A stretch of DNA of 52,393 bases. Origin: Fibrobacter succinogenes (GTDB taxonomy: Bacteria; Fibrobacterota; Fibrobacteria; Fibrobacterales; Fibrobacteraceae). Within the stretch, counting starts at the first letter, position 1. Every line of letters begins with the position of its first letter. The notes beneath the pieces are model-generated. The model made no database searches. It had not been told where the DNA came from and saw only the letters and a list, made by a program, of their open reading frames with translations. The stretch covers positions 1-52,393 of the forward strand of contig NZ_CACZDK010000024.1 in NCBI RefSeq assembly GCF_902779965.1. The letters run 5' to 3'. The position numbers were made by a program, and so were the translations under genes. Shown here piece after piece: positions 6,876 through 34,885 of the stretch.

Positions 6876-6930
6876 ACTACCTACTGCCTACTAACCACTT
6901 CCTACTTCCTACATCTAACTTCCTACTACT
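6876..6930 (+). repeat. Heptad-period intergenic tract ending at the yhhQ start codon
   Basis: Consecutive 7-mers ACTACCT, ACTGCCT, ACTAACC, ACTTCCT, ACTTCCT, ACATCTA and ACTTCCT run without a break in phase and end directly at the ATG at 6931. No Shine-Dalgarno is visible in it. Confidence 0.75.
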
Positions 6931-7641
6931 ATGCAAAACGAAATTATCCTAATCGCCTCTATCTTCGTGTTCTTTGGCGGTCTCGTTGCATTCTTCCGCT
7001 TCTTCGGCAAGCAGGGCATTTTCGCCTGGACCGTCATTTGCACGATTGCCGCCAACATCGAAGTGCTCATTCTCGTGCATGCCTTCGGGCTCGATACTAC
7101 GCTCGGTAATGTCATCTTCGCTTCTTCTTTCTTGGCGACCGACATCATGAGCGAAATTTTCGGCAAAAAAGAAGCAAGCCGTTGCGTTAAAATTGGCATT
7201 CTTGCAAATGTCACGTTCATTCTCATTTCGCAAAGCTGGTTCTTGTACATCCCGGCCGAAGGCGATACAATGGCAGAACCCATCCGCACGGTGTTCTCGA
7301 ATACGCCACGTGTGATGCTTGCTAGTTTGTTTGCATACGCCGTCTGCGAAATGTACGATGTGTGGGCATACCACGCCGTCTGGAAATGGACCGAAAAAAA
7401 GTTTGGCAGCAAGAAGCGTTATTTGTGGCTGCGCAACAACGGTTCCACGCTGGTGAGCCAGTTGATTAACGTGGTCGTGTTTAACCTGCTTGCGTTTGCT
7501 GGCGTTTTTCCGTGGAATACGATTGGTGAAATTTTAATCTTCGGCTACGGCATCTTCATCGTGACATCGCTCATGGACACTCCGTTTGTGTACCTTGCAC
7601 GCCGCATCGCCGAAAAACACCCGGAACTGCTGAACGAGTAA
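6931..7641 (+). CDS. yhhQ: Queuosine precursor transporter, YhhQ/VUT family
   Basis: The 236-residue integral membrane protein has about six hydrophobic segments and matches the YhhQ family (formerly DUF165) in length and pattern. Family-typical segments include FASSFLATDIMSEIFGKKEA and a C-terminal WLRNNGSTLVSQLINVVVFN. These proteins import preQ0/preQ1-type precursors across the inner membrane. Position directly downstream of queF supports the call. The start codon directly abuts a 7-bp-period tract and no Shine-Dalgarno is seen, so separate or leaderless initiation is possible. Confidence 0.9.
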   Translation: MQNEIILIASIFVFFGGLVAFFRFFGKQGIFAWTVICTIAANIEVLILVHAFGLDTTLGNVIFASSFLATDIMSEIFGKKEASRCVKIGILANVTFILISQSWFLYIPAEGDTMAEPIRTVFSNTPRVMLASLFAYAVCEMYDVWAYHAVWKWTEKKFGSKKRYLWLRNNGSTLVSQLINVVVFNLLAFAGVFPWNTIGEILIFGYGIFIVTSLMDTPFVYLARRIAEKHPELLNE

Positions 7642-7697
7642 AGAACGTTTTTTGTATATTAAGAGTCGTTCAACTATAAAATGGAGAAGTTATTTTT

Positions 7698-8126
7698 ATG
7701 AAGTTTTCCCACGTTTTGATTTTGGCTAGCTCCCTTGCTTTCTTTGCTTGCGGTGATGATGATGATTCCCCGACGAGCGCAAAGAGCGGATACGATTGCA
7801 CCGTGTCCGATGGCGTCAAGGTTGTTTATCCGACCGTTAGCGAACAGTTTAAAGTCGGTGACGAAATTACGGTTGTTTTTGGTACAACCATTGATGATGG
7901 TTATCGCATCATGTTCAAGAAAAATGCTGGCGATCGCGGTAGTGATTTGTTCAACGGATCCTATGATTTGACGGCTCCGGCTGACGGCAAGACTTGCCAT
8001 ACGGTGAAGGTCAAGCTTGATGCCGAAAAGGGTGTTGAAGAAACATTGACTGGTAGTATCCGTGTCGAGCCTTACAACAAGTCGAGTTTGGGTAACAACT
8101 CCGCCCTCTTCGTTGTCAAGAAATAA
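7698..8126 (+). CDS. Small lipoprotein of unknown function
   Basis: The 142-residue product has an N-terminal signal and lipobox LAFFAC (Cys17-18 region) followed by Gly-Asp-Asp-Asp-Asp, which is common in Fibrobacter lipoproteins. The mature part looks like a beta-rich domain (VKVVYP, VGDEITVVFG and a closing SALFVVKK) but I do not recognise a family. Shine-Dalgarno GGAGAAG precedes the ATG. The stop TAA overlaps the next start (TAATG at 8124-8128), so it is probably translationally coupled to the epimerase gene, although a functional link is not evident. Confidence 0.85.
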   Translation: MKFSHVLILASSLAFFACGDDDDSPTSAKSGYDCTVSDGVKVVYPTVSEQFKVGDEITVVFGTTIDDGYRIMFKKNAGDRGSDLFNGSYDLTAPADGKTCHTVKVKLDAEKGVEETLTGSIRVEPYNKSSLGNNSALFVVKK

Positions 8127-9196
8127 TGAACCTCCAGTTCAACGATTCTAGTATCACCGTAGCCATTGTTGGCTGCGGTGGTTTTATTGGGTGCCACCTT
8201 CTCGATGCTATTTTGTCGCGCACGCAGTGGCGCGTTTTTGGCGTTGATTTGAATTTTTACAGGATCCAGCACAGGCTCAGCAACGAGCGTTGCGAGTTCA
8301 TGGTGGCTGACCTCGCCGATAAGAGTGTCGTTGAACGAATTGCAAAATATCCAGTTGTAATGAACTTGGCTGCGATTTGCACGCCGAGCCGATACATGGC
8401 GGAAGCTCCCGAAGTTATCCGCAGTAATTACGACCATCCGGCAGCGTTGGCCGATGCTTGCGCCAAGTCGGGTTCATGGTTGATTCATTTTTCGACGTCC
8501 GAGATTTACGGTCGCACGTCTGCAGATTCTGGCTTGCTTGTCGAAGATGAGTCGGAACTCACGTTTGGTCCGGTAACTGCAAGCCGTTGGAGTTATGCCA
8601 CTGCGAAGCTCCTCACGGAACGCTATATTGCGGGCCTCAAGAATTTAAAGTGGACCGTGGTGCGGCCGTTTAACTTTGTTGGGCCGTACATGGACTTTAT
8701 GCCTGGGGTCGATGGCTCGGGTATTCCGCGTGTGCTTGCGAACTTTTCGTCGGCGCTTGTGCGCGGCGAACCGCTCAAGCTCGTGAATGGCGGAATTGCC
8801 AAGCGTAGCTTTACAAGTGTCTTTGATGCGGTCGATTTTATGTTCGCTTTGTTTGAATCGGACAAAACGCCGTTCTCGCAAGCGTTCAATATCGGGAATC
8901 CGGACAACGAAATTACGATTGCCGAGTTGGCGTGGAAAATGCGCAAGATTTATGCAGAAATTAAAGGTATGAGCCTTGAGTCTGTTCCTGAACCGGAAGA
9001 GGTTTCGGGGGTGGAATATTACGGCGAAGGTTACGAAGATTCCATGCGCCGTTTGCCGTCAGTCGAAAAGGCGGAGCGCTTGCTTGGCTTCAAGGCAAAA
9101 ACTCCGATTGATGTGGTGCTACGCGAATCGTTAGAGTGGTTTGTCGGACATTACAGCAATACAAGTCATTCTGATACTGATTCTGCGTCATCCTGA
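8126..9196 (+). CDS. NAD-dependent epimerase/decarboxylase, ArnA C-terminal-like extended SDR
   Basis: The 356-residue cytoplasmic enzyme has the extended short-chain dehydrogenase fold: a nucleotide-binding G-C-G-G-F-I-G at 16-22, STSEIYG with the catalytic Ser/Thr, and Y-A-T-A-K (Tyr near 157). PFNFVGP and a GGIAKRSFTSVFDAVDFMF segment resemble the UDP-glucuronate decarboxylase domain of ArnA. The likely substrate is a nucleotide sugar, but which one cannot be read from the sequence. It is followed 20 nt later by a GT2 glycosyltransferase, suggesting a small sugar-modification unit. The last codons (…DSASS) and the stop lie in or next to a dispersed palindrome. Confidence 0.88.
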   Translation: MNLQFNDSSITVAIVGCGGFIGCHLLDAILSRTQWRVFGVDLNFYRIQHRLSNERCEFMVADLADKSVVERIAKYPVVMNLAAICTPSRYMAEAPEVIRSNYDHPAALADACAKSGSWLIHFSTSEIYGRTSADSGLLVEDESELTFGPVTASRWSYATAKLLTERYIAGLKNLKWTVVRPFNFVGPYMDFMPGVDGSGIPRVLANFSSALVRGEPLKLVNGGIAKRSFTSVFDAVDFMFALFESDKTPFSQAFNIGNPDNEITIAELAWKMRKIYAEIKGMSLESVPEPEEVSGVEYYGEGYEDSMRRLPSVEKAERLLGFKAKTPIDVVLRESLEWFVGHYSNTSHSDTDSASS

Positions 9197-9212: not shown

Positions 9213-9216
9213 AATT

Positions 9217-9978: not shown

Positions 9979-10002
9979 AATTGTAGTCTTTTATAAAAAA
10001 CT

Positions 10003-10031: not shown

Positions 10032-10057
10032 TTGTTAGGAATGAAAAAGGAGAATGC

Positions 10058-12112: not shown

Positions 12113-12196
12113 GTTCCAACGACCTATATTTAACTATCTATCAATCATAGTTTACTAACTGCTAACGATTGACTTTTAACTATATATATTTACTGT
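12113..12196 (+). repeat. Degenerate heptad-period spacer upstream of moxR
   Basis: The 84-nt spacer equals 12 x 7 and contains CTAACTG, CTAACGA, TTGACTT and TTAACTA in one phase. A TATATT box at 12185-12190 lies 6 nt before the ATG, which suggests a leaderless start. The periodicity is weaker than in other tracts. Confidence 0.45.
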
Positions 12197-13269: not shown

Positions 13270-13340
13270 ACCTTAAAATCAAACCCCTAAAACCTAAACT
13301 TTAAAGCGGCACTGCCGCGACCTCATACCTCACAACCTCT
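13270..13340 (+). repeat. Heptad-period tract upstream of the DUF58 gene
   Basis: CCCTAAA, ACCTAAA, CTTTAAA and then ACCTCAT, ACCTCAC, AACCTCT recur at 7-bp spacing, with a short GC-rich interruption. The tract has the CTAA/CTCA-type sense orientation seen upstream of starts. Confidence 0.55.
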
Positions 13341-22303: not shown

Positions 22304-22344
22304 ATCGTCTCCGTTTAAAATTTGAGAACAATTAAACCCTTATA

Positions 22345-22361
22345 TTAGCTAATATAGCTAA
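22345..22361. promoter_or_regulatory. Operator-like palindrome upstream of the GH74 gene
   Basis: TTAGCTA, spacer ATA, TAGCTAA is a perfect 7-bp inverted repeat in the AT-rich leader about 42-58 nt before the xyloglucanase start. It overlaps a TATATT-like promoter region and could bind a regulator. No regulator gene is adjacent. Confidence 0.4.
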
Positions 22362-22455
22362 ATTTTTAGAAAAGTGAATATTATATAAATGTTAAAATGA
22401 GAAGTTTTTTGAGAACATCTTGGTGCGAAACCCGAAAATTTCGCTAAATACAAAA

Positions 22456-22503
22456 AGACCCCGGAACTCTTTGGCGAGGCTCTGCGCTTCGCAAGTCCGG
22501 GGC
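22456..22503. repeat. Dispersed palindrome (GACCCCGGAACTC type)
   Basis: GACCCCGGAACTC and GTCCGGGG flank an inner GCGAGGCTCTGCGCTTCGC. The same outer arms recur at 6845-6863. Confidence 0.55.
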
Positions 22504-22521
22504 GATATCTAAAGTATGTAA

Positions 22522-22553
22522 ACTAAGTTCTAAGCTCTAAGTTCTGCCTGCTA
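22522..22553 (+). repeat. Heptad-period tract at the 3' end of the histidine-phosphatase gene
   Basis: ACTAAGT, TCTAAGC, TCTAAGT, TCTGCCT and GCTATTC follow at 7-bp spacing. The stop codon of the minus-strand gene (CTA 22551-22553 on the plus strand) is inside the last unit. Confidence 0.65.
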
Positions 22554-23671: not shown

Positions 23672-23797
23672 CCAACCCCTTAACCACTAACCACCAACCA
23701 CTAACCACTGCCTACGAACCACCAACCACTAACCACTTCCTACTTCCTACTGTCTACTTCCTACTTCTAACTTCCTACTTCCTACCGTCTACTGAAT
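23672..23797 (+). repeat. Longest heptad-period tract, 18 units
   Basis: From 23672 to 23797 the sequence can be read as 18 uninterrupted 7-mers, mostly ACTAACC, ACCAACC, ACTTCCT, ACTGTCT and ACCGTCT. It fills most of the spacer between two minus-strand genes and contains the stop codon of the downstream-lying membrane protein gene (plus-strand CTA 23775-23777). Confidence 0.85.
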
Positions 23798-24599
23798 TAT
23801 AGTTAATCTCATTTCTACGCTTTAATTCTTTGTTCAGTGGCCAATAAATGAGTGCAAAGACGATATAGCCGATGAGCAGCACAAGCCAGTGGTTGAGTCC
23901 AAAGCCTATTTCCACATAGCGCATTGTCACGAACATAAATGGTCCCGCGATCAAAAATAGCGGAAGCTGCCTGCATTGGTCCCCGAGCGAAAAACGGCTC
24001 TCGTAGCTCACGATAGAGTTCATCATCGGGAAACTGGTGCAAAAACCGCCCATCAGACGCTTGATAAGCATAAGGCTCGAAACAACGCCTGCAATAGCGG
24101 GTGCCTTGATGTAAATCGGGAGCGGGGTCTTATAGCGCACGCCGGACTTGTATTTTTGCTTTTGGAAGAAAATCACGCCGATAATAAAGTCAAAAACGCA
24201 GGCCCCGATAAAGTAAGCTTCGCCTTGGGGAATGCGTGAGTGCAAAAATGTTCCGAGTGCCACAAAAAAGGCAAGCCCGGCAATAATAGAAGGGACGATG
24301 GGAACCTTGACTTTGTAGTGTAAAATACGTACAATATGTACATATAACATGCACATAAATCCAGAAACCGCGTTTTCTGTACCCATCGGGAGGCCTACTG
24401 CAATGTAGGCGAAACCGCAAGGGATGGGGATGGTGGCGGTAACGGCCTTGAGCTGCGGGTCCTTTAGGTAGGCGCTAAGAGTCCCGAGGGCGGTGACCAT
24501 GAAAATTAGCAGCCAATCGTAGAGCGAAAAATGAAAATTTAACGATTCTAACATCGAACGTAAAAAATAGAAAAGTAAGCGCCTTTTCAACTTTTCCAT
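23775..24599 (-). CDS. Polytopic membrane protein of unknown function
   Basis: The product has about eight or nine hydrophobic segments, for example LLIFMVTALGTLSAYL, VPSIIAGLAFFVALGTFL, YFIGACVFDFIIGVIFF and LLIGYIVFALIYWPL. I do not recognise a family. The start is uncertain: ATG 24599 (MEKLKRR, 274 residues) is a compromise, with ATG 24554 and 24626 also possible. None has a clear Shine-Dalgarno, and longer versions would run into the divergent pyrophosphatase gene. The C-terminal residues SVDGRK and the stop are encoded inside the heptad tract, so the gene end has been remodelled by the repeat or vice versa. Confidence 0.7.
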   Translation of the reverse strand: MEKLKRRLLFYFLRSMLESLNFHFSLYDWLLIFMVTALGTLSAYLKDPQLKAVTATIPIPCGFAYIAVGLPMGTENAVSGFMCMLYVHIVRILHYKVKVPIVPSIIAGLAFFVALGTFLHSRIPQGEAYFIGACVFDFIIGVIFFQKQKYKSGVRYKTPLPIYIKAPAIAGVVSSLMLIKRLMGGFCTSFPMMNSIVSYESRFSLGDQCRQLPLFLIAGPFMFVTMRYVEIGFGLNHWLVLLIGYIVFALIYWPLNKELKRRNEINYNSVDGRK

Positions 24600-24656: not shown

Positions 24657-27026
24657 ATGCTTTCGATTCCGTCTTATTGGTATTTTGTCCCAGTGGCGGC
24701 GTTTATTGCTCTGGGAATGGCTCTCTTCTTTTATCGTTTTATGAAACGCGCCCCCGAGGGCAACGCGAAAATGAAGGAAATCGCCCATTATGTGCGTGTG
24801 GGAGCCTACGCTTACCTCAAAAAGCAATACCGGACGATATCGGTGGTCTTTGTAGTGCTGTTCGTTGTTTTTGTTGTTTTGGCGGCGCTAGGAATCCAAA
24901 ATCCGTTTGTGCCGATTGCGTTTTTGACCGGAGGCTTTTTCAGTGGCCTTTGCGGATTTTTGGGGATGAAGACTGCAACGTATGCGAGTTCCCGAACCGC
25001 GAATGGAGCCATGTCGAGCTTGAACCGCGGGCTTGTCATTGCTTTTAGAAGCGGCGCCGTGATGGGGCTTATCGTTGTGGGGTTTGGGCTTTTAGATATT
25101 TCGGCCTGGTTCTTTTTGCTCAATTACATTTACGACAACAATGTTTGGGGCTTTGGTGCCGACATTGCGTCTAAACTTTCGCTTGGCGCTTGGAATGCGG
25201 ACTTGGTTGCTAACGCCGAATGGGCCCATGCAAAAATGGTAGAAATTACGACGACCATGCTTACGTTTGGCATGGGCGCTTCGCTGCAGGCTTTGTTTGC
25301 TCGCGTGGGTGGCGGTATCTATACAAAGGCGGCGGATGTCGGTGCTGACCTCGTGGGTAAAGTCGAGGCGGGTATCCCGGAAGATGATCCGCGTAATCCG
25401 GCGACCATTGCAGATAACGTGGGCGACAATGTGGGCGATGTGGCTGGCATGGGCGCTGACCTTTATGAATCCTATTGCGGTTCCATTCTTTCGACCGCGG
25501 CGCTCGGGGCAGCACTCCCGATGGGCGGCTTGAAACTTGTGATTGCGCCGATGCTGGTGGCTGCAATCGGGATTGTCCTTTCTATCGTGGGAATCTTTGC
25601 TGTGCGTACGCGTGAAGACGCTACGACCAAGTCGTTGTTGCGCTCTCTTTTGACGGGAACGTTAGGCTCGTCGGTTCTTATTCTTTTGGCGCTTTTGGTG
25701 CTTGTCAAAATGGATTTTATTTCGATGGGCATATTTGGTTCCGTGCTCTCGGGTCTTGCGGCGGGGATTCTCATTGGGCAGTTTACGGAATATTTTACTT
25801 CGGACGCTTATGCGCCTACGCGCGGGATTGCAAATCAGGCGAGGCTTGGTGCTGCAACGACGATTATTGATGGAATTTCGGTAGGCATGTTTTCGACAGG
25901 GCTTCCGGTGGTGACCATCGTGGTGGGTATTGTCTGCGCGTTTGGCTGTGCTGGCGGTTTCAGCGATATGGCAATGGGACTTTACGGTGTCGGCTTTGCT
26001 GCGGTGGGCATGCTGAGTACGCTTGGCATAACGCTTGCAACAGATGCGTTCGGACCGATTGCCGATAATGCGGGTGGAAATGCCGAGATGGCGGGGCTTG
26101 CTCCCGAGGTGCGTGAACGTACCGATGAACTGGATATGCTCGGGAATACGACTGCTGCAACGGGCAAGGGTTTTGCCATTGGTTCTGCGGCTCTGACGGC
26201 TATGGCGCTTTTGGCATCGTATGTTGAAGAAGTGAAATTCTGGCTTGGGCATTTGGCGTCATCTGCAGAAGGTGTTTGGAAGGTCGGGTCCGTTGTTTTT
26301 GCGAACAGCGTAAACGATTTGGCGAATGCGCTTTCTGGTGTTGTGGGTGTGAAGTTCCTCGATGGTGGAACGCGTGCGATTGCTGAAAACGGCGATTTAG
26401 TTGGCATGGTTGCAAGTAAAGTAAGCTATGCGGACTTTATGCAAATTTATAATCTCAATTTGATGAACCCAATGCTATTGGGCGGGCTGTTTATTGGTGC
26501 GATGATGACATTTGTATTCTGCGCTTTGACCATCAAGGCAGTGGGGCGTGCTGCAAGTGCGATGGTCGAAGAAGTGCGTCGCCAGTTCCGCGAAATTCCG
26601 GGAATCATGTTTGGAACCGGGAAGCCTGATTACGCTCGTTGCGTTGAAATCTCGACGATGGGGGCGCAACATGAAATGGTGCTTCCTTCGATTTTAGCGG
26701 TGGTCGTGCCTGTGCTTGTTGGGCTTACGATGGGCGTTGCGGGCGTGTTTGGACTTTTGGCTGGAGGCCTTGCTTGTGGTTTTGCGCTCGCGACGATGCT
26801 CAACAATGCCGGTGGCGCCTGGGATAACGCAAAGAAGTTTGTCGAAAAAGGCAATTACGGTGGTAAGGGGTCTGATACGCACAAGTCTGCCGTTGTTGGC
26901 GATACTGTTGGCGATCCGTTCAAGGATACAGCTGGCCCTTCTCTCAACATCCTTATCAAACTCATGACCATGGTGAGTGTCGTGTTTGCTGGCGTTATCG
27001 TTGGCTTTGGGAACATGTTCTTTTAG
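24657..27026 (+). CDS. hppA: Membrane-bound ion-translocating pyrophosphatase, K+-dependent type
   Basis: The 789-residue protein hydrolyses pyrophosphate and pumps H+ or Na+ across the inner membrane. About 16 membrane segments are visible. The substrate site contains DVGADLVGKVEAGIPEDDPR and NPATIADNVGDNVGDVAGMG (about 235-270). The GNTTAATGKG motif near 496 has Ala where K+-independent enzymes have Lys, so a K+-dependent enzyme is expected. The C-terminal part has GGAWDNAKKFVE and HKSAVVGDTVGDPFKDTAGP. GAGG precedes the start. H+ versus Na+ specificity cannot be settled here. The stop codon TAG is part of the first heptad of the following tract. Confidence 0.96.
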   Translation: MLSIPSYWYFVPVAAFIALGMALFFYRFMKRAPEGNAKMKEIAHYVRVGAYAYLKKQYRTISVVFVVLFVVFVVLAALGIQNPFVPIAFLTGGFFSGLCGFLGMKTATYASSRTANGAMSSLNRGLVIAFRSGAVMGLIVVGFGLLDISAWFFLLNYIYDNNVWGFGADIASKLSLGAWNADLVANAEWAHAKMVEITTTMLTFGMGASLQALFARVGGGIYTKAADVGADLVGKVEAGIPEDDPRNPATIADNVGDNVGDVAGMGADLYESYCGSILSTAALGAALPMGGLKLVIAPMLVAAIGIVLSIVGIFAVRTREDATTKSLLRSLLTGTLGSSVLILLALLVLVKMDFISMGIFGSVLSGLAAGILIGQFTEYFTSDAYAPTRGIANQARLGAATTIIDGISVGMFSTGLPVVTIVVGIVCAFGCAGGFSDMAMGLYGVGFAAVGMLSTLGITLATDAFGPIADNAGGNAEMAGLAPEVRERTDELDMLGNTTAATGKGFAIGSAALTAMALLASYVEEVKFWLGHLASSAEGVWKVGSVVFANSVNDLANALSGVVGVKFLDGGTRAIAENGDLVGMVASKVSYADFMQIYNLNLMNPMLLGGLFIGAMMTFVFCALTIKAVGRAASAMVEEVRRQFREIPGIMFGTGKPDYARCVEISTMGAQHEMVLPSILAVVVPVLVGLTMGVAGVFGLLAGGLACGFALATMLNNAGGAWDNAKKFVEKGNYGGKGSDTHKSAVVGDTVGDPFKDTAGPSLNILIKLMTMVSVVFAGVIVGFGNMFF

Positions 27027-27057
27027 TCATTAGTTGTTAGTCATTGGTCGTTATGGC
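27023..27057 (+). repeat. Heptad-period tract starting inside the hppA stop codon
   Basis: TTAGTCA, TTAGTTG, TTAGTCA, TTGGTCG and TTATGGC follow one another. The TAG in the first unit is the hppA stop. The orientation is TTAG type, as expected after a gene end. Confidence 0.7.
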
Positions 27058-27166: not shown

Positions 27167-27250
27167 AGTAACTAGTAACTTCTAACTTTTAAATTCTAAA
27201 CTCTAAGATCTAAGATCTAAGTTCTAAACTCTGCCATCTATTTACTATCT
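27167..27250 (+). repeat. Heptad-period tract upstream of the rfbD-like gene, 12 units
   Basis: AGTAACT twice, then TCTAACT, TTTAAAT, TCTAAAC, TCTAAGA twice, TCTAAGT, TCTAAAC, TCTGCCA, TCTATTT and ACTATCT. It ends 20 nt before the ATG, leaving room for the GAGG Shine-Dalgarno. Confidence 0.8.
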
Positions 27251-27270: not shown

Positions 27271-28191
27271 ATGAAAGTTTTAGTGACGGGTGTCGGTGGC
27301 CAGCTGGGTCACGATGTGATGAATGAACTTGCAAAGCGCGGATACGAAGGGGTCGGTAGCGATATTGCTCCAGCGTATTCTGGAGTTGCCGATGGAAGCG
27401 CTGTTACGACTATGCCGTATGTGCCCATGGATATTACGAATGCCGCTGCCGTTGCTGAAACAATCAAGAACGTTAAGCCGGATGTGATTGTGCATTGCGC
27501 TGCTTGGACTGCCGTGGACCTTGCCGAAGACGAAGACAAAAAAGCGAAGGTCTTTGCAATCAACGCCGAAGGAACCGAAAACATCGCTCGCGTTGCAAAA
27601 GAAATCGAAGCGAAGATGGTTTACATCAGTACAGACTACGTGTTTAATGGTCGTGGCACAGCGCCGTGGAAACCGGATTGCAAAGATTACGAGCCGCTCA
27701 ACGTTTATGGCGAATCCAAGCTCAAGGGCGAACTCGCTGTTAGTGGAACTCTCGAAAAGTATTTCATTGTGCGCATTGCTTGGGTGTTCGGCCTCAACGG
27801 CAAGAACTTCATCAAGACGATGCTTAAGGTGGGTGAGTCTCACGATACCGTTCGCGTTGTGTACGATCAAATTGGAACGCCGACTTACACGCTCGACTTG
27901 AGCCGTCTCCTCGTGGATATGATTGAAACGGACAAGTACGGCTATTATCACGCTACGAATGAAGGTGGATTTATCAGCTGGTACGAATTCACCAAGGAAA
28001 TCTACAAGCAGGCTGGCCTCCCGACGAAGGTGTTGCCGGTGACGACGGCGGAATACGGGCTTTCTAAAGCCGCACGTCCGTTCAATAGCCGTTTGGACAA
28101 GAGCAAGCTTGTGGAAGCAGGCTTTAAGCCGCTCCCGACATGGCAAGATGCCCTTGGCCGTTACCTCAAGGAAATTGGGGTTATTGCTTAA
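27271..28191 (+). CDS. rfbD: dTDP-4-dehydrorhamnose reductase
   Basis: The 306-residue short-chain reductase catalyses the last step of dTDP-L-rhamnose synthesis. VTGVGGQLGHDVMNEL is the nucleotide-binding loop, HCAAWTAVDLAEDE and INAEGTENIARVAKE follow, YISTDYVFNG gives the catalytic Thr, and YGESKLKGE gives the Tyr and Lys. RIAWVFG and the C-terminal RPFNSRLDKSKL with WQDALGRYL are also typical. GAGG precedes the ATG. No rfbABC genes are near, so the assignment rests on sequence alone. Confidence 0.92.
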   Translation: MKVLVTGVGGQLGHDVMNELAKRGYEGVGSDIAPAYSGVADGSAVTTMPYVPMDITNAAAVAETIKNVKPDVIVHCAAWTAVDLAEDEDKKAKVFAINAEGTENIARVAKEIEAKMVYISTDYVFNGRGTAPWKPDCKDYEPLNVYGESKLKGELAVSGTLEKYFIVRIAWVFGLNGKNFIKTMLKVGESHDTVRVVYDQIGTPTYTLDLSRLLVDMIETDKYGYYHATNEGGFISWYEFTKEIYKQAGLPTKVLPVTTAEYGLSKAARPFNSRLDKSKLVEAGFKPLPTWQDALGRYLKEIGVIA

Positions 28192-28301: not shown

Positions 28302-29342
28302 CTACGAGAATTTTTCGTACAAGGCGTCTCGTTCCACAGGAACGAGGCCTTCTTTTGTTATAAGGCTCTTCATGCGTTCTGGGCTCATGCCCACGGGAAC
28401 CGTGGCGCCTGCGGCATGCGTAATCTTTTCTTCGATAATCGTACCGTCCAAATCCGATGCACCGGCGTGGAGAGCCTTCATGGCAGTTTCGATGCCCATT
28501 TGAATCCAGTATGCCTTGATGTGTGGGAAGTTGTCTAAGAACAAACGAGAAACGGCGACCGTGCGCAATATGTCTTCTTCACTTGTGATGTTCGGAACAA
28601 TTTGATGGAGCGCGTTGTGTTCCGGGTGGTATACGAGCGGAATGAACGCAAAAAATCCCGGAGCTTCGTCTTGCAAGTCGCGGAGCATCTTCATGTGCGC
28701 AATGCGGTCTTCGATCTTTTCGATATGCCCGAACAGCATTGTTGCATTTGTTGGAATTCCGAGCTTGTGTGCTGCACGATGAACGTCAAGCCATTCTTCG
28801 CCGGTTTCCTTGCCCGGACAAATCTTGTCGCGTACACTTTGTACTAAAATTTCGGCACCGCCACCGGGGAGCGCGTCAAGCCCTGCGTCCTTGAGCGTTG
28901 CCATAATCTGTTCGGGCGTTTGCTTGGAAATTTTGGCGAAGTGGCAAATTTCAACGGCCGTAAAAGCTTTCAAATTTGCAGACGGAAATTCCTTGCGGAG
29001 CTTGCGCAACATTTCGATGTAGTAATCGAATGGATGATCCGGGTGCAGGCCTCCAACGATATGCAACTCGCGGGCGCCTTTGCTAATCGCTTCGGCGGCC
29101 TTGTCGCGGATGGTTTCGTAATTCCAGTCGTAAGCGGTCGGGCTATCTTTTTTAATGCGGCTGAAGGCACAGAATTTGCAGTGCAGAACGCACACGTTTG
29201 TGTAGTTGATTTGGCGATTGTTCACCCAATAAACGGACTTGCCGTGGCGTGCTTCTTTTTCGGCATTCGCGCGTGCGCAAAGTTCATCGAGCGGTGCGTT
29301 CAAAAATAAATCGAGAGCTTCTTGTTCTGTAAGGCGAGACAT
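28302..29342 (-). CDS. mqnE: Aminodeoxyfutalosine synthase, radical SAM
   Basis: MqnE joins enolpyruvyl-benzoate and S-adenosylmethionine in the futalosine pathway to menaquinone. The [4Fe-4S] cluster cysteines are C51, C55 and C58 in CVLHCKFCAF. ELHIVGGLHPD, FTAVEICHFAK, GLDALPGGGAEIL and TNATMLFGHIE are conserved in the MqnE/CofH group, and the 346-residue length fits MqnE. The gene stands alone, with no other mqn genes visible. A TATATT box (29354-29349) lies 6 nt before the ATG, so the mRNA may be leaderless. Confidence 0.93.
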   Translation of the reverse strand: MSRLTEQEALDLFLNAPLDELCARANAEKEARHGKSVYWVNNRQINYTNVCVLHCKFCAFSRIKKDSPTAYDWNYETIRDKAAEAISKGARELHIVGGLHPDHPFDYYIEMLRKLRKEFPSANLKAFTAVEICHFAKISKQTPEQIMATLKDAGLDALPGGGAEILVQSVRDKICPGKETGEEWLDVHRAAHKLGIPTNATMLFGHIEKIEDRIAHMKMLRDLQDEAPGFFAFIPLVYHPEHNALHQIVPNITSEEDILRTVAVSRLFLDNFPHIKAYWIQMGIETAMKALHAGASDLDGTIIEEKITHAAGATVPVGMSPERMKSLITKEGLVPVERDALYEKFS

Positions 29343-29350: not shown

Positions 29351-29406
29351 TATAGTTATTAGTGGCTAGTGATTAGTAGGAAGTAGGCAGTAGGAAGTAG
29401 GAAGGA
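29351..29406 (-). repeat. Heptad-period tract upstream of mqnE
   Basis: On the plus strand TATAGTT, ATTAGTG, GCTAGTG, ATTAGTA, GGAAGTA, GGCAGTA, GGAAGTA and GGAAGGA follow in phase. In the sense of mqnE this is the CTAA/CTAC orientation that precedes gene starts. Its first unit contains the mqnE -10 box. Confidence 0.75.
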
Positions 29407-29440
29407 GACGGTGGGCGGAATAATATCATTGCGCAAGCGT

Positions 29441-29630
29441 GTTCCTGCATCTCTCGGCTCTGATGTCGTTTCTCTTCGAGGCTTGACCTGTTCGCCTCGG
29501 ATATAGGAACATGTAAATATGTTCCTGCATCTCTCGGCTCTGATGTCGTTTCTCTTCGAGGCTTGACCTGTTCGCCTCGGATATAGGAACATATAAATAT
29601 GTTCCTGCATCTCTCGGCTCTGATGTCATT
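29441..29630. repeat. 80-bp tandem repeat, 2.4 copies
   Basis: Units 29441-29520 and 29521-29600 differ at one position (ATGTAAATAT versus ATATAAATAT), and a third partial unit runs 29601-29630. Each unit contains CGAGGC...GCCTCG and begins with GTTCC and ends near GGAACAT, so adjacent units create AGGAACAT-N6-ATGTTCCT palindromes. Since 80 is not a multiple of 3, the open frames across it are artefacts. The rest of the 29343-29799 spacer holds the heptad tract and a decayed GTCATTCTCGAC-type palindrome; no gene is visible. Confidence 0.85.
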
Positions 29631-29999: not shown

Positions 30000-31160
30000 T
30001 TACACGAACTTTTTCAAAATGTGTTTGCTGGCGTAGAAATAATCAATTCCGCTGATGAGTGTAATGGCTGTTATGATGCCCATCACAACGACAGGAAATT
30101 TCGGCCAAATATTTTCGAAACCTGGAATCAATGCACGCACCGGATCGATGGCTCCAAGGAGAATGGCGACAATGCCAATGCCTTGCAATGCCGTTTTCCA
30201 TTTGCCACTGCGGCGTGCAGGCATAATCAGCCCTTCGCTTGCAGCAAGCGTGCGGAGCGTTTCCACGCTAGATTCACGGAAGTAAATCAAGGCGACCATC
30301 CACACCGAAGCGTAACCTGTTGCAATAAAGCACATGAAAATTGTCATGTTCGAAATCTTGTCGCTGAACGGATCGAGGTATTTGCCGAGCGTGCTCACTT
30401 CGCCCATGGATCGTGCGAGCTTGCCGTCTAGGTAATCGGTAAGCATAAATCCAAGCACCATCACGAGCGCGAGTACTTTAAAGACAATACTGTTGTTGCT
30501 GTAATCCAAATCGTTGTCGTAGAAGAACACCCAAAGGAAAAACGGAGTGAGCACAATGCGGCTCATGGTGAGTTGGCTTGCAATCGAAAGCGGTTTGCGG
30601 TGTGCGGGGTCGCGGTAATACCAGTATGCGTATGCAGCGGTAGAGGCGGCGATGAGCAAAATGGAAACGACCATCATAATTTGTTGTAGATTTTCGATGT
30701 TCAACAAATAGACGCCCATCGTGATTGTTACGGAGAGATTCGCGAGTTTACTCCAGCGGCGTTTGCGGGGGAGTTGTTTCCCTTCGCGTAGCACTCCAAG
30801 CGAAAATAACGTGTGCGCGATAAGTCGCCCGAGCAAAACGGCGCAACCGACACCCAAAATTTTTTCAACACTTTCGTTTTGGAGAAGGTCGCGGGCAAAA
30901 ATGCTAGCCATCACGATAAACTGTAAAAATCCGTCAATCGCGTTGAGCCAAAGTCTGTAGTAGGGCTTTTCGATTTCCTGGCTTTTCAACTGGAATAGGT
31001 TGACCCATCCCATGATAAGTGCTATACCCACGAAAGAGCAGGCCATCGTTGTCCATCCTTCCCAGATGAATACGATGACGCAGATAAAGACGAGTGCACG
31101 CAAGATACTCCAAATGCGTGAACGCAAACGAACATCAGATGCATTTTCTGGTTCTGTCAT
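30000..31160 (-). CDS. CDP-alcohol phosphatidyltransferase (PgsA-like) with N-terminal extension
   Basis: The 386-residue inner-membrane enzyme carries the CDP-alcohol transferase motif D-G-x2-A-R-x8-G-x3-D-x3-D (DGKLAR to DPFSD, near 246-267). The likely product is phosphatidylglycerophosphate or a related phospholipid. Typical PgsA proteins have about 180-200 residues and correspond to the C-terminal half here. The N-terminal 190 residues add about five or six hydrophobic segments of unknown role. The ATG overlaps the recN stop by 4 nt (31157-31160), so translation is coupled to recN. Plain pgsA is not certain because the head-group substrate cannot be read. Confidence 0.85.
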   Translation of the reverse strand: MTEPENASDVRLRSRIWSILRALVFICVIVFIWEGWTTMACSFVGIALIMGWVNLFQLKSQEIEKPYYRLWLNAIDGFLQFIVMASIFARDLLQNESVEKILGVGCAVLLGRLIAHTLFSLGVLREGKQLPRKRRWSKLANLSVTITMGVYLLNIENLQQIMMVVSILLIAASTAAYAYWYYRDPAHRKPLSIASQLTMSRIVLTPFFLWVFFYDNDLDYSNNSIVFKVLALVMVLGFMLTDYLDGKLARSMGEVSTLGKYLDPFSDKISNMTIFMCFIATGYASVWMVALIYFRESSVETLRTLAASEGLIMPARRSGKWKTALQGIGIVAILLGAIDPVRALIPGFENIWPKFPVVVMGIITAITLISGIDYFYASKHILKKFV

Positions 31161-32806
31161 AAATTATTCTCCAACAACTGCTTTGCATGAGTGCGGACTG
31201 TTTCTGAAGATCCACCTAACATTCTAGCAATTTCTTCGATACGCCCGTTCTTGTCGAGATCAATAATGGACGTAAAAGTCCTTCCATCGACTTCTTTCTT
31301 GCTCACTGCGAGTTGATTTTCGGCGCGACTGGCCACTTGATGCAAGTGGGTGATGGTGAGCACTTGGTGATGCTTGCCCAATTTCCGCAAGGCTTCGCCA
31401 ATGCTGTTGCCTGTTTCGCCCGAAATTCCAGAATCGACTTCGTCGAAAATGAGCAGCGGAACTTTGTCGAGTTCGGCCATGACGCTCTTGATGGCGAGCA
31501 GCACACGGCTGAGTTCGCCGCCGGACACGGCCTTTTGCAAAGACTTTTCGCCTTCGCCCGGGTTTGGTGCAAGCAAAAATTCAATGCGGTCGAAACCGTT
31601 GGACGCGGGCGCCTGTTCAGTGATGCTGGTAGAGAATTTTGCTTTTGGCATGCCAAGGCTATGCAAAATTTCTTGCACGGCGGAGTCGAACCGAAGTGCG
31701 GCTTCACGGCGCTTTTCGGTGAGGCTCGCGGCGAGACGAACTGTTTCAGCCTTGTGCGCATCGGCTTTACGCTTGAGTTCTTCGATGTCTGCATCGAGAT
31801 TTTCGAGGCTGTCGAGTTCCTGCTTACGTTGTTCGGTAAGCGCGATAAGCCCTGCGACATCGGTGCGGTACTTGCGCTTGAGCTTTTGAATGAGCGCGAT
31901 TCGGGAATTGGCCCGGTCGATTTCGACGGGGCTCATGGACTTTGCCGGGCGGAGCCTTTGCAAATCCTTGCAGATTCCCTCGAACGGGTCCGCCACTTCG
32001 AGGAGGGCGTTCAAGTCTTCTTCGTAATGTGGAATCTTTTGGGCGAGGGAACGCAATTTGTACTGAAGGTTCTGGACCTGTTCGAGAATGCCGTTATCGT
32101 AACCGATGAGCGCTTGAATTTCGTTCAGCAGATTATGTTCAGCTTCGCTCTTGCTTGCAATGTTGACTTTTTCTTCAAGCTCTTCTTCTTCGCCATCGCG
32201 GAGCGCAGCCTTTGAAAGTTCTTCGTACTGGAACTTCAAAAAATCTTTTTGTTGAGCAAGGTCTTTGGCGTGAGCTTCTGTTTGCTGGATTTTTGCAAGA
32301 ACATCATTCCAAACGTTATAGCTCTTTGTATAGTTTGTAAGCAACTCGCCGTTGCCCGCATATTCGTCGAGCATTTTAGCATGTGTGCGGATGTCGCGTA
32401 ACAAAAGCTGTTCGCTCTGGCCATGCATCTGGATGAGCGATTCGCCAAGTTCTTGCAAGTCCGAGAGACTTACCACAGAACCGTTTACGCGGGCGCGCCC
32501 TTTTCCGTTTTCTAAAATCTCGCGGCGAATAATGAGCTCGTCGTCATCATCGAGTTCAAGTCTTGCGAGTATCTGCTTGACTTCGGGATCGTTACTGATA
32601 TCGAACGTTCCTTCGACGACTGCTTTTTCTTCGCCCGTGCGGACCATGGACGCTTGCGATTTGTCTCCGCAAACCATGCGGAGCGCTTTCATAAGAACGG
32701 ATTTGCCTGCGCCAGTTTCACCAGTAATAGCAGTAAAGCCCCCGTGGAAGGGAACCGTTGCCTCCGCTATCAATGTGAATCCGTTAATTGTAAGTTGCTT
32801 TAACAT
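31157..32806 (-). CDS. recN: DNA repair protein RecN
   Basis: RecN is an SMC-like ATPase that acts early in double-strand break repair. The 549 residues match the family. Walker A TGETGAGKS is at 28-36, a long coiled-coil centre runs from about 150 to 370, and the C-terminal lobe carries the signature SGGELSRVLLAIKS, Walker B LLIFDEVDSGISG and ITHLHQVAS. It is the first gene of a recN-pgsA-like pair. Upstream lies a heptad tract (32834-32868) rather than a recognisable LexA-type box. Confidence 0.96.
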   Translation of the reverse strand: MLKQLTINGFTLIAEATVPFHGGFTAITGETGAGKSVLMKALRMVCGDKSQASMVRTGEEKAVVEGTFDISNDPEVKQILARLELDDDDELIIRREILENGKGRARVNGSVVSLSDLQELGESLIQMHGQSEQLLLRDIRTHAKMLDEYAGNGELLTNYTKSYNVWNDVLAKIQQTEAHAKDLAQQKDFLKFQYEELSKAALRDGEEEELEEKVNIASKSEAEHNLLNEIQALIGYDNGILEQVQNLQYKLRSLAQKIPHYEEDLNALLEVADPFEGICKDLQRLRPAKSMSPVEIDRANSRIALIQKLKRKYRTDVAGLIALTEQRKQELDSLENLDADIEELKRKADAHKAETVRLAASLTEKRREAALRFDSAVQEILHSLGMPKAKFSTSITEQAPASNGFDRIEFLLAPNPGEGEKSLQKAVSGGELSRVLLAIKSVMAELDKVPLLIFDEVDSGISGETGNSIGEALRKLGKHHQVLTITHLHQVASRAENQLAVSKKEVDGRTFTSIIDLDKNGRIEEIARMLGGSSETVRTHAKQLLENNL

Positions 32807-32833
32807 ACTAGATAAATTAGCAAAAGAATGTGC

Positions 32834-32868
32834 TTGGTTTTAGGTTATAGGTTGTAGGTTTTAGGAAA
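32834..32868 (-). repeat. Heptad-period tract upstream of recN
   Basis: The plus strand reads TTGGTTT, TAGGTTA, TAGGTTG, TAGGTTT, TAGGAAA. In the sense of recN this is the CCTAAAA/CCTACAA type expected before a start. Confidence 0.75.
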
Positions 32869-32924
32869 AGAATCACGTGCTTTGCACGTCTTAAAAAGGT
32901 GGCTACGCCACGATTTTTTTCTAC

Positions 32925-32969
32925 CTATCACCTAATCCCTATCACCTAATCCCTATCACCTAATCCCTA
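32925..32969 (+). repeat. 14-bp tandem repeat (two heptads) abutting the trmB stop codon
   Basis: Three perfect copies of CTATCACCTAATCC (32925-32966) end with CTA 32967-32969, which is the complement of the trmB stop codon TAG. Confidence 0.85.
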
Positions 32970-33722
32970 TTTTTCAAATTCAATAATACTTCTATAAATC
33001 GGACGGCCTTCTTTCTTGTACTTGCGTTCGAATCCGGTCAAGATCCCTTCGGTCGGTTCTGCCGTATTGCGGACGATAACTTTGCAAGTCGGGTAGGCAT
33101 CGAACGTTTCAAGTGCAATTTCGTTGTATTCCTTGTGGTCGGTGCCCCAATAGAAAATGCGTTTGCCCGGTTTAAAACAGCGAGCGACTTCGTCGAGAAA
33201 ATCAGGACGGAGCAAACGATTCTTGTGGTGGCGTTCCTTTGGCCACGGGTCCGGGAAATACATGTGGAATGTATCCACGGTGTTGGACTTCACGGCATCG
33301 CGCAAGAAGTAGAAAACATCACCGCGCAACATGGCGGCATTGCCCTGAGCTACGATTCCGCGTTTTTCCATGCGTTCGTGAGCAAATGCGGCCCACGTGA
33401 AGTCCCATTCGCTACCCATGATAAAACGGTCCGGATGCTTTTCGGCGTAGTCCGTCATGAAGTTGCCTTTGCCACTTCCGATTTCTACTTCGATATGACC
33501 GTTCTCGTTCGGGAACATGTCTTTCCAGTCGAAGTCGAGCTTGTGTGGCAATCCGTCCGGCGTCTTGATGGGCTTGCGGTCGCCATTCGTGCGGAATATG
33601 TAATGCCACAGCGCCTTCATTTGCGGATCTTGGTTCAAGTCTCGATAAAACTCCGGAATCACGACTTCCTTCGGAGCCTTCTCTTCTTCGTTCAATACTT
33701 CGTTGTTGTTTTCGTCTGCCAT
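32967..33722 (-). CDS. trmB: tRNA (guanine-N7-)-methyltransferase
   Basis: TrmB methylates G46 of tRNA with S-adenosylmethionine. The 251-residue sequence shows VEIGSGKGNFMTDYAEK (SAM site), GSEWDF and FPDPWPKERHHKNRL, plus a C-terminal NTAEPTEGILTGFERKYKKEG that carries the family's catalytic-site T-x-F-E-x-(K/R). About 40 acidic N-terminal residues extend beyond most homologues. The stop codon is the first unit of the 14-bp repeat. It is probably a single-gene unit. Confidence 0.94.
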   Translation of the reverse strand: MADENNNEVLNEEEKAPKEVVIPEFYRDLNQDPQMKALWHYIFRTNGDRKPIKTPDGLPHKLDFDWKDMFPNENGHIEVEIGSGKGNFMTDYAEKHPDRFIMGSEWDFTWAAFAHERMEKRGIVAQGNAAMLRGDVFYFLRDAVKSNTVDTFHMYFPDPWPKERHHKNRLLRPDFLDEVARCFKPGKRIFYWGTDHKEYNEIALETFDAYPTCKVIVRNTAEPTEGILTGFERKYKKEGRPIYRSIIEFEK

Positions 33723-33766
33723 AATGTTTTTTTCTTAAAATAAAAATTTAGTTCCGAGTTCTGCTC

Positions 33767-33850
33767 GTCATCCTCCGCTAGGAGGATTCATACAGTTCCA
33801 AATTAGCAAAGTATGGATTCCCTCCTTCGCTACGCTCAGTCGAGAATGAC
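33767..33850. repeat. Composite dispersed palindrome upstream of trmB
   Basis: CGTCATCCTCC 33766-33776 with GGAGGAT 33781-33787 forms the left hairpin. GGATTCCCTCC...GTCGAGAATGAC is the right half, and its outer arms oppose the left half. The right half is also found in reverse at 29639-29665. Confidence 0.6.
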
Positions 33851-33869
33851 CCTCATTTCTAGAATCACT

Positions 33870-33999
33870 AGTAACTCTTAACTATTAACTAGTAACTAAG
33901 TTCTAAGTTCCGAGTTACTAGAAATGTTTATATTGCTATCTCTAGTAACTAAGTTCTAAGTTCTGCCAACTTCCTACTTCCTACCGTCTACTTCCTACT
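33870..33999 (+). repeat. Two heptad-period tracts downstream of the RNase Z-like gene
   Basis: Units 33870-33918 are AGTAACT, CTTAACT, ATTAACT, AGTAACT, AAGTTCT, AAGTTCC and GAGTTAC. Units 33944-33999 are AGTAACT, AAGTTCT twice, GCCAACT, TCCTACT, TCCTACC, GTCTACT and TCCTACT. The stop codon of the minus-strand gene (CTA 33998-34000) overlaps the last unit. Confidence 0.75.
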
Positions 34000-34885
34000 A
34001 AATAAACGCTACAATCTTCTCCTTGAATTTTTCTGGAATTTCCTTATCGAGCATCTCGCGGATGTGCCTCTCGGAATACTTCATCGAGAAATGACTCAAG
34101 ATGATTTTTTCGCACTTGATTTCATCATCGAGCTCGTTGAGCGCATGCACTATATCTTTCAAGTGGCTGTGCCCTTTCTTTTTGCTCATCGCTTCCTCGC
34201 CATCGTCGAGGAACGTGCATTCCGTAATCAGCACTTTCGACTGGAAAACGCGGCTGTTGTCGAGCAAGCTTTCGCCAAGGCAATCGCCCATGAAGCTTAC
34301 GAGTGGTTCATAAACTTCGCGCGTGATTTCGACACCTTGCTTGCGCAGTTCGATAATTTCGGTGGCCGATTTCCCGAGGAATTCATCCTTGAGCTTTTTC
34401 TTGTAAAAATAAAGCGTTCCGCCCATTGTCGGGATTGAGTGCTTGACTTCGAAAGCTTCAATCGCAAGGTCTTTGCGGTAGCGCAAAAATTGCAATTCGC
34501 CAGCGGTTACCGGTTCAATTTCCGGGTAGCGGAATTTTGTTTCGCCAACACCTTCGAACATCGCTTCGGCTTTAATCCAGGCCTTTGCGTTTTCGCTGAT
34601 GAAATCCGGCATGTAATAGACGCTGTCGCGTTCGACACCCATCATCTTGCGCAGGCTGTGGTGACGCATCAGGCAGCGGGCGTGGTCGCCGTGGGCGTGC
34701 GTCAAGAACACATGGTCTAGTGGAATAGCCGAAAGCGGGCATTCGCCCATGTCAATGCAAAAATCAAGTTCGGGAATTTGAATATACGTTGCTAGTCCGG
34801 AAATCGAAAATCCGGAAATTGGAGAACACGGCGTATCGACGTGTATCTGCCGTAGAGCGTTATGTATGTACTTATTTTCGTTCAC
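33998..34885 (-). CDS. Metallo-beta-lactamase-fold hydrolase, RNase Z-like
   Basis: The 295-residue protein has the zinc-binding HAHGDHARC motif after FLTHA and an upstream DMGE segment. LITECTFLDDGEEA with KGHSHLKD and HFSMKYSERHI supply further conserved Asp/His positions as in tRNase Z (ELAC) relatives. tRNA 3'-end processing is therefore plausible, but the sequence lacks the exact RNase Z layout I would need for a firm rnz call. It is transcribed away from the lipoprotein gene at 35017, with a terminator between them at 34975-34995. Confidence 0.83.
   Translation of the reverse strand: MNENKYIHNALRQIHVDTPCSPISGFSISGLATYIQIPELDFCIDMGECPLSAIPLDHVFLTHAHGDHARCLMRHHSLRKMMGVERDSVYYMPDFISENAKAWIKAEAMFEGVGETKFRYPEIEPVTAGELQFLRYRKDLAIEAFEVKHSIPTMGGTLYFYKKKLKDEFLGKSATEIIELRKQGVEITREVYEPLVSFMGDCLGESLLDNSRVFQSKVLITECTFLDDGEEAMSKKKGHSHLKDIVHALNELDDEIKCEKIILSHFSMKYSERHIREMLDKEIPEKFKEKIVAFI

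What the first reader, a model, noticed from the sequence alone, without database searches (positions are those of the whole stretch)
6876..34000. Family of intergenic tracts with strict 7-bp periodicity
At least eleven spacers contain consecutive degenerate heptads in unbroken phase: 6876-6930, 12113-12196 (weak), 13270-13340, 22522-22553, 23672-23797 (18 units), 27023-27057, 27167-27250, 29351-29406, 32834-32868, 32925-32969 and 33870-33999. The unit changes from tract to tract (ACTTCCT, TCTAAGA, AGTAACT, TAGGTTT, TTAGTCA), but a CTAA/CTAC (or complement TTAG/GTAG) core and the period of 7 persist. Heptameric short tandem repeats (STRR) are known from cyanobacterial genomes, but I am not aware of a description of such a family in Fibrobacterota.
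Basis: seen in the sequence. Interest (0 to 1): 0.75.

Follow-up and report, generated by a model that had tools for sequence, protein, structure and literature searches.

The report
Seven-base repeat arrays between Fibrobacter genes
The gaps between genes in this Fibrobacter genome hold many tandem arrays built on a seven-base beat that mostly point away from the neighbouring genes, differ between species and come and go between relatives, so they look like a new variant of a known kind of short bacterial repeat that may behave like a spreading element.

Summary
The 7-bp periodicity is real. Nine of the 11 listed tracts beat shuffles in lag-7 identity (p 0.003 or less); 12113-12196 and 13270-13340 do not. 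In 452 kb of this genome lag 7 gives 58 segments (0 in three shuffles); lags that are not multiples of 7 give 0-6. A CTA-every-7 pattern occurs 385 times genome-wide against 2 for the reversed control, and at least once in each of the 36 genus relatives searched.

Three features go beyond plain slippage repeats. Arrays are polar: the TAG strand runs away from the nearest gene in 87 of 103 runs (p 5e-13); purine content shows the same in two other species. Each of three species has its own vocabulary, shared by unlinked loci. Arrays are present or absent at orthologous spacers and some start exactly at the stop codon.

Best reading: arms of dispersed, partly inverted intergenic elements, spread by an unidentified activity, whose arms change by whole heptads. 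RAYT and IS630-type genes were not found. Against it: arms within a spacer are not specifically matched. Heptameric repeats are known elsewhere: new variant of a known kind.

The parts
6876..6930 (+). family A array (ACTACCT/ACTTCCT units), CTA strand on +, running up to the ATG at 6931
   Evidence: lag-7 identity 0.69, p 0.0005
12113..12196 (.). listed tract, not significant on its own
   Evidence: lag-7 identity 0.39, p 0.095
13270..13340 (.). listed tract, not significant on its own; interrupted by a small GC palindrome
   Evidence: lag-7 identity 0.41, p 0.071; sequence
22522..22553 (+). family B array (TCTAAGT units) at the 3' end of the minus-strand gene 22551-23579
   Evidence: lag-7 identity 0.68, p 0.0015
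23672..23797 (+). longest array: family A, AACC-type units followed by TTCC-type units, reaching the 3' end of the minus-strand gene called at 23775-24500
   Evidence: lag-7 identity 0.72, local score 43
27023..27057 (-). family F array (TTAGTCA units on +), starting at the TAG stop of the H+-pyrophosphatase gene 24657-27026
   Evidence: lag-7 identity 0.61, p 0.003; orthologues
27167..27250 (+). array passing in phase from family C (AGTAACT) to family B (TCTAAGA), before the rmlD-like gene 27271-28191
   Evidence: lag-7 identity 0.73; Pfam RmlD_sub_bind
29351..29406 (-). family A array (AGTAGGA units on +), upstream of the minus-strand radical-SAM gene 28302-29342; differs by 28 bp between L041 and L043
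   Evidence: lag-7 identity 0.71; alignment
32834..32868 (-). family E array (TAGGTTT units on +), first arm of an inverted pair upstream of the recN-like gene 31157-32806
   Evidence: lag-7 identity 0.75; folds with the next part
32925..32969 (+). family E array (CTATCACCTAATCC, 14-bp unit), second arm, ending at the stop of the minus-strand gene 32967-33722; one 14-bp unit fewer in L041 and L043
   Evidence: lag-14 identity 1.00; alignment
33870..33948 (.). family C/B array with the AT-rich centre of the GTTACTAG-N-CTAGTAAC element (centre element 33914-33949)
   Evidence: local lag-7 score 18; genome pattern
33949..33999 (+). array passing from family B to family A, joined to the TAG stop of the minus-strand gene 33998-34885
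   Evidence: local lag-7 score 11.5; orthologues without a family A array mostly end TAA

Best explanation
The tracts are the arms of dispersed miniature intergenic repeat elements of Fibrobacter. A typical arm is a degenerate array of heptads whose purine/TAG-bearing strand runs 5' to 3' into the spacer, away from the adjoining gene; where a spacer has two arms of opposite polarity the purine arm comes first. Family A arms often begin TTTA|GTAG(GAAGTAG)n and the mirror arm often ends (CTACTTC)nCTAC|TA. Copies spread between loci (inferred; by an unidentified mobilising or recombination activity), so that one genome shares one vocabulary of units; arms then change length in whole heptads (shown at two arrays; slippage is the inferred cause, and that 7-nt loops escape mismatch repair is recalled knowledge). 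The gene-edge polarity is partly the geometry of an inverted element and probably partly selection (inferred): outward TAG every 7 bp gives stops in all three frames beyond a gene's end, and the purine strand is kept out of the sense strand upstream of starts. No cellular function is needed by this account.
For: Genome-wide heptads with a dominant period of 7. Polarity 87 of 103, and by purine content within 60 bp of genes 55 of 65, 18 of 22 and 15 of 18 in three species, ties left out. Neighbouring tracts purine-pyrimidine 21, pyrimidine-purine 1. The C-type inverted element at 20 sites in G000, control 0, with similar centres at unrelated sites. Recurrent A-to-B junction TTGG(C/T)AGAACTTAG and recurrent TTAG head (17 of 50 arrays). 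Nearest tract from the same genome in 81% against 32% for shuffled labels. Presence/absence in 11 of 59 orthologous spacers, e.g. 173 against 5 bp. Exact whole-unit differences of 14 and 28 bp. Array start at the stop codon in 11 of 32 cases; TAG stop with, TAA without a family A array at 33998 in most close orthologues.
Against: Arms of one spacer are not better matched to each other than to arms of other spacers (p 0.71; p 0.50, 0.30 and 0.25). Folding of tract spacers is only modestly stronger than of others (median z -1.40 against -0.78, 48 spacers each). Single tracts beyond 60 bp from genes show no polarity (4 of 11 outward). No RAYT or IS630-type gene was found and no target duplication was shown. 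The stop-codon link fails in G016 and G008 and is mixed in ortholog pairs. The TTTA|GTAG and CTAC|TA ends were read where arrays stop matching my own word list, so the contrast with array interiors is biased by construction. A 200-kb sample of G014 had no lag-7 excess (3 segments against 4 at lag 9).
Confidence: 0.55

Rival explanations
1. Ordinary heptameric simple sequence repeats: each array arises and grows in place by replication slippage in 7-nt units, tolerated in spacers because 7 is not a multiple of 3.
For: Dominant period of 7; 91 of 101 tracts outside called genes; whole-unit differences; 7-bp gaps at tracts in 5 of 25 against 2 of 181 elsewhere, though four of the five come from one locus; heptamers reported as the most abundant long repeats in most genomes (Mrazek 2007, as described in PMC4679880, section read).
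Against: Does not predict polarity, the vocabulary shared by unlinked loci, recurring composite junctions or whole inserts.
Confidence: 0.2
2. Cis-acting gene-expression signals kept by selection: pyrimidine heptads as leaders just upstream of starts and TAG heptads as back-up stops or mRNA 3' structures, as proposed for TAACTGA repeats in translation.
For: Within 60 bp 3' ends carry TAG-sense 43 to 3 and 5' ends CTA-sense 28 to 1; polarity of single tracts fades beyond 60 bp; spacers between co-directional genes carry runs in 55 of 258 against 10 of 85 divergent and 8 of 68 convergent.
Against: Arrays are absent from most orthologous spacers of a relative and differ in family at one locus, which is fast turnover for a needed signal; density varies from 1 to 527 matches within one genus.
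Confidence: 0.15
3. GTAG-type repetitive extragenic palindromes spread by RAYT transposases.
For: Family A arms carry GTAG and, in inverted order, CTAC.
Against: No PF01797 match in G000 (assembly 97% complete); GTAG is iterated every 7 bp instead of tagging one end of a short stem-loop; other families lack GTAG.
Confidence: 0.05
4. Binding arrays for a protein that reads a 7-bp period in DNA or RNA.
For: Phase is kept across changes of unit.
Against: Unit sequences differ widely within and between species; no candidate protein was looked for.
Confidence: 0.05

Closest known systems
Heptameric long simple sequence repeats and cyanobacterial STRR (Mrazek 2007 known to me through PMC4679880 and PMC4692102; STRR papers recalled)
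   Same: 7-nt unit, tandem, mostly intergenic, variable unit number
   Different: Several degenerate unit families in one genome joined in phase, polarity relative to genes, inverted order, species-specific vocabulary
TAACTGA repeats of marine Beggiatoaceae (PMC4679880; passages and introduction seen)
   Same: Intergenic heptads, mostly in one orientation before start codons, often ending next to the start; 7-nt indels between relatives reported in Cyanothece; stops in three frames noted by the authors
   Different: One unit there, many units here; arrays also at gene 3' ends in the opposite sense here
GGGAATC repeats of Xanthomonas and GGGGA(C/T)T repeats of Nostoc (PMC4692102; passages seen)
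   Same: Many intergenic degenerate heptads, some inverted pairs
   Different: No G-quadruplex type unit in the window; G000 and G014 share almost no arrays, whereas Xanthomonas repeats lie at conserved places
GTAG-tagged REPs (PMC3733652; passages seen)
   Same: Intergenic, dispersed, palindromic arrangement, GTAG end in family A
   Different: No RAYT in this genome; heptad arrays instead of one short stem-loop
Miniature inverted-repeat elements with TA flanks, such as Correia elements (recalled)
   Same: Short inverted elements; TA next to the ends of family A
   Different: Arms are heptad arrays; no IS630-type DDE_3 gene found; target duplication not shown

Membership tests
Heptameric SSR / STRR | tandem unit of 7 nt far above chance | tested here: met
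   58 lag-7 segments against 0 in three shuffles; other lags that are not multiples of 7 give 0-6
Heptameric SSR / STRR | mostly intergenic | tested here: met
   91 of 101 tracts outside called genes
Heptameric SSR / STRR | unit number varies in steps of 7 | tested here: met
   14- and 28-bp differences in aligned spacers; 7-bp gaps 5 of 25 at tracts, two independent loci only
TAACTGA-type repeats | one unit dominates the genome | tested here: not met
   several unit families in G000; most frequent unit class in 31 of 91 tracts
GTAG REP | GTAG at the end of the palindrome | tested here: inconclusive
   TTAG before the first TAG in 17 of 50 and any NTAG in 25 of 50 family A arrays; ends defined by my word list
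GTAG REP | RAYT (Y1 transposase) in the genome | tested here: not met
   no PF01797 match in G000
MITE with TA duplication (IS630 type) | matched terminal inverted repeats | tested here: inconclusive
   purine-pyrimidine order 21 against 1, but arms of one spacer not specifically matched
MITE with TA duplication (IS630 type) | related transposase in the genome | tested here: not met
   no PF13358 match in G000
MITE with TA duplication (IS630 type) | 2-bp TA target duplication | tested here: inconclusive
   TA after the last CTAC in 23 of 45 family A arrays; no clean empty site with both flanks
Known structured RNA | match to an Rfam family | tested here: not met
   only a tRNA in the window at gathering thresholds

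The most novel reading that the evidence does not exclude
Fibrobacter harbours a so far undescribed class of miniature mobile elements whose ends are built of heptads and which settle at the edges of genes, in some cases at the stop codon so that the element itself supplies the new stop (TTTAA becoming TTTA|GTAG...), spread by an enzyme that is neither RAYT nor IS630. One exploratory candidate is the Rpn-type PD-(D/E)XK family PF12784: 26 matches in G000, some being pieces of one gene, and its count per Mb correlates with heptad density over 37 genus genomes (rho 0.49, p 0.002, not corrected for kinship or completeness); arrays were not consistently next to the five Rpn genes looked at.
Probability: 0.25. 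Interest if true: 0.75.

Novelty: new variant of a known kind. Interest (0 to 1): 0.52.

Why it matters
Why seven is the favoured unit of long bacterial repeats is an open question. Fibrobacter offers a natural experiment: a genus in which some species have hundreds of array matches and others almost none, with species-specific vocabularies and arrays that turn over at orthologous spacers. Polarity relative to genes and joining to the stop codon are testable properties that slippage alone does not predict. The arrays also bear on practice: they sit at gene starts and ends, and their unit numbers could serve as typing markers in an important rumen genus.

Tried and rejected
Chance or composition: rejected by shuffles and other lags. 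RAYT-spread REPs: no PF01797 in G000. IS630-type MITEs: no PF13358. Matched, co-evolving hairpin arms: permuting arms gave no signal, so not claimed. Transcription terminators: convergent spacers are not enriched (8 of 68). Rfam families: none but a tRNA. Rpn nucleases as driver: correlation only; of five Rpn genes looked at, L180 and L181 have no heptads in the DNA held, L182 has a short one, C17 has an array about 1.3 kb away and C3 has none within 1.5 kb. A purely gene-edge explanation was weighed: single tracts beyond 60 bp lack polarity, which favours it, while neighbouring tracts keep the purine-pyrimidine order. A telomere-like addition of units to broken ends would fit the strand polarity but predicts original spacer outside the arms, whereas many arms abut genes; set aside without a separate test. 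The TAA-to-TAG switch is clear at one locus and partial at three others, mixed in ortholog pairs and unsupported in G016 and G008, so it is kept as supporting detail. A motif-based polarity test in G008 was negative (9 of 15) and was replaced by purine content, which was chosen after seeing that its words differ. Genes were called with a simple hexamer script of my own, so start positions are approximate.
Full report
WHAT WAS CHECKED. Nine of the 11 tracts have a lag-7 identity above shuffles (p 0.003 or less); 12113-12196 and 13270-13340 do not (p 0.095 and 0.071); 32925-32969 is a perfect 14-bp repeat made of two heptads. In the window lag 7 gives 9 segments against 0 in 20 shuffles. In 452 kb of the same genome (window plus parts of three contigs) lag 7 gives 58, its multiples 14, 21, 28 and 35 give 45, 22, 14 and 7, and the other lags from 3 to 34 give 0-6; three shuffles give 0 at lag 7 and 0-2 at the other lags. 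In 852 kb, 20.8% of the genome, there are 101 tracts at a slightly lower threshold, 10 of them inside called genes. At a low threshold 84 of 450 spacers of 40-1500 bp hold a tract, with 3-14 segments in ten sets of shuffled spacers and 2-14 segments for lags 5, 6, 8, 9 and 10.

WHERE IT LIVES. The window belongs to Fibrobacter: its RecN-like gene matches named Fibrobacter genomes at up to 98% amino-acid identity. CTAN4CTAN4CTAN4CTA occurs 385 times in G000 against 2 for the reversed control; 48 of the 60 relatives searched have it, among them each of the 36 of the genus, with 1 to 527 matches; in some of these the reversed control (ATC core) is as frequent or more so, e.g. G012 81 against 25, G015 60 against 16, G029 6 against 1 and G009 9 against 3, so a few species are near background or use other heptads. 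The narrower TCTAAG pattern was found in 29 of 60 relatives, among them a class-level relative, G048, with 143 matches, although a 148-kb sample of G048 showed no lag-7 excess (3 segments); nor did 200 kb of G014 (3), 100 kb of G055 (1) or 78 kb of G052 (2), while 100 kb of G057 gave 10, 200 kb of G016 gave 26 and 300 kb of G008 gave 21. Named loci of Chlorobiales and Anaerolineales hold heptad arrays too (L100, L112, L108, L110), so the period is not peculiar to this phylum.

ANATOMY. Units fall into families: A (ACTTCCT, ACTGTCT, ACTGCCT, ACCGTCT, with ACTAACC), B (TCTAAG plus one base), C (CTAGTAA, CTATTAA), D (TCTCTCG), E (CCTAAAA, CCTAATC) and F (TTGACTA, TTGACCA); unlike families can follow each other without loss of phase. 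Family C can flank an AT-rich centre, GTTACTAG-N-CTAGTAAC: 24 matches at 20 sites in G000, 0 for the control, with similar centres at unrelated sites. Family A arrays often start (T)TTA|GTAG: TTAG precedes the first TAG in 17 of 50 and any NTAG in 25 of 50; on the other strand TA follows the last CTAC in 23 of 45. Both ends were read where arrays stop matching a list of unit words of mine, so the absence of TA inside arrays (0 of 116) is largely by construction. An A-to-B junction TTGG(C/T)AGAACTTAG recurs at several loci. In an all-against-all comparison of 476 spacers, dispersed repeats took up 11,669 of 101,880 bp, and the 50 most covered segments listed are largely arrays.

POLARITY. Reading away from the nearest gene one reads TAG, at starts and stops alike: 87 of 103 intergenic runs of three or more (p 5e-13); within 60 bp 43 against 3 at 3' ends and 28 against 1 at 5' ends, beyond 60 bp 16 of 28. 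With purine content as a motif-free measure the outward strand is purine-rich within 60 bp in 55 of 65 tracts of G000, 18 of 22 of G016 and 15 of 18 of G008, ties left out; over all distances 66 of 88, 20 of 26 and 16 of 20 (p 3e-6, 0.009 and 0.012); spacers without tracts average 0.49-0.53. An earlier motif-based test in G008 gave 9 of 15 (p 0.61). Of the neighbouring tract pairs in one spacer 21 are purine-pyrimidine and 1 pyrimidine-purine; 17 more share one polarity and 3 involve a tie. Single tracts are outward in 35 of 44 within 60 bp and 4 of 11 beyond.

TURNOVER. Between G000 and G014 (88-89% nucleotide identity at the piece used to place them) 59 orthologous spacers could be compared: 48 have no tract, 9 only in G000, 2 only in G014, none in both at the threshold, although one (C17_136410) shows heptads in both by eye; sizes such as 173 against 5, 175 against 35 and 122 against 34 bp point to whole inserts. 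Around the window one spacer (32807-32966) holds E, F, C/B or GCCCATA-type arrays, or is only 28-36 bp long, in close relatives. In aligned spacers of the window, L041 and L043 the length changes by exactly 14 bp (32925 array) and 28 bp (29351 array), and at 27167 units are homogenised without a length change. Gaps at tracts are 7 bp in 5 of 25 cases against 2 of 181 elsewhere; four of the five come from one locus seen in several genome pairs.

VOCABULARY. With 20 tracts from each of three species the nearest tract by shared 7-mers (over 2 kb away if on the same contig) is from the same genome in 81% against 32% for shuffled labels. G016 uses TTAGGGG/TTAGGAT, AACTCAT and TTCGGAA; G008 uses GAGCTAT, TCTAGCC and CTCATCG.

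STOP CODONS. In G000 32 of 676 genes have outward TAG heptads after the stop; 25 of the 32 end in TAG against 187 of 644 others, and 11 of the 32 arrays begin directly after the stop as TAG|TAG. A detection based on lag 7 gives 24 of 36 against 188 of 640 (p 9e-6), but 4 of 11 against 58 of 155 in G016 and 4 of 12 against 77 of 215 in G008, no association. For the beta-lactamase-fold gene at 33998 the five orthologues with a family A array (window, L041, L046, L047, L048) end GTTTATTTAG or GTTTGTTTAG; L042 and L045 without an array, and L043 and L050 with arrays of other families, end GTTTATTTAA; L049 without an array ends in TAG. For the methyltransferase-like gene at 32967, eight of nine orthologues with arrays end in TAG (L042 in TAA). 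Only loci up to L064 were printed and arrays there were judged by eye. Among 109 orthologue pairs, 8 have an array on one side only: TAG against TAA in 2, TAG in both in 5, TGA in both in 1.

MECHANISM. Shown: period, location, polarity, vocabulary, turnover, whole-unit changes. Inferred: that arrays spread as parts of elements, that slippage changes their length, and that selection before starts and after stops adds to the polarity. Not shown: any enzyme, target duplication or function. Matching of arms within a spacer failed its test (17 pairs, p 0.71; 21, 10 and 4 pairs, p 0.50, 0.30 and 0.25), and tract spacers fold only modestly better than others. No RAYT or IS630-type gene was found in G000, an assembly of 97% completeness; PF12784 (Rpn-type) has 26 matches, and its density correlates with heptads (rho 0.49, n 37, p 0.002, uncorrected).

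NOVELTY. PMC4679880 (passages and introduction), PMC4692102 (passages) and PMC3733652 (passages) establish heptameric intergenic repeats and GTAG palindromes as known kinds; a search for the word Fibrobacter in the main text of each found none. PMC5442110 on F. succinogenes S85 (passages) mentions no such repeats in the passages shown. Seven literature searches in open-licence PMC (listings only) showed no description in Fibrobacterota; subscription papers were not searched. Mrazek 2007 is known to me only through the papers named; the STRR and tRNA-Leu intron papers, Correia elements, the limits of mismatch repair and the Rpn literature are recalled.

Noticed in passing
window 29440-29627: An 80-bp unit repeated 2.3 times at 99% in the same spacer as the 29351 array and a tRNA-Met gene.
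   Followed up: no
window 40674-48441: Five minus-strand ORFs of 469-487 aa follow one another closely, perhaps paralogues.
   Followed up: no
window 50980-51224: A 111-bp tandem repeat (2.2 copies, 93%) inside the ORF 50419-52203.
   Followed up: no
G000 C8:25643-25938, C1:124068-124242, C1:74176-74325, C3:126574-126718: A second dispersed repeat with a CCCTTCGACAGGCTCAGGG core, in either orientation, lies next to or between heptad arms at several loci.
   Followed up: partly
L183-L192 (G016): G016 arrays read TTAGGGG/TTTAGGG, like plant telomere repeats, with the G-rich strand often running away from genes; resemblance recalled.
   Followed up: no
L100, L112, L108, L110: Chlorobiales and Anaerolineales loci carry heptad arrays with other units, some inverted.
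   Followed up: no
G011, G012, G015, G033: Reversed-control hits (ATC every 7 bp) are frequent, so some Fibrobacter species use heptads without a CTA core.
   Followed up: no
G000: PF12784 (Rpn-type nuclease) has 26 matches in this genome and none in 14 control genomes.
   Followed up: partly
L045, spacer orthologous to window 22304-22550: The spacer is 1274 bp long and holds what I took by eye for an Rpn-type gene; not searched.
   Followed up: no
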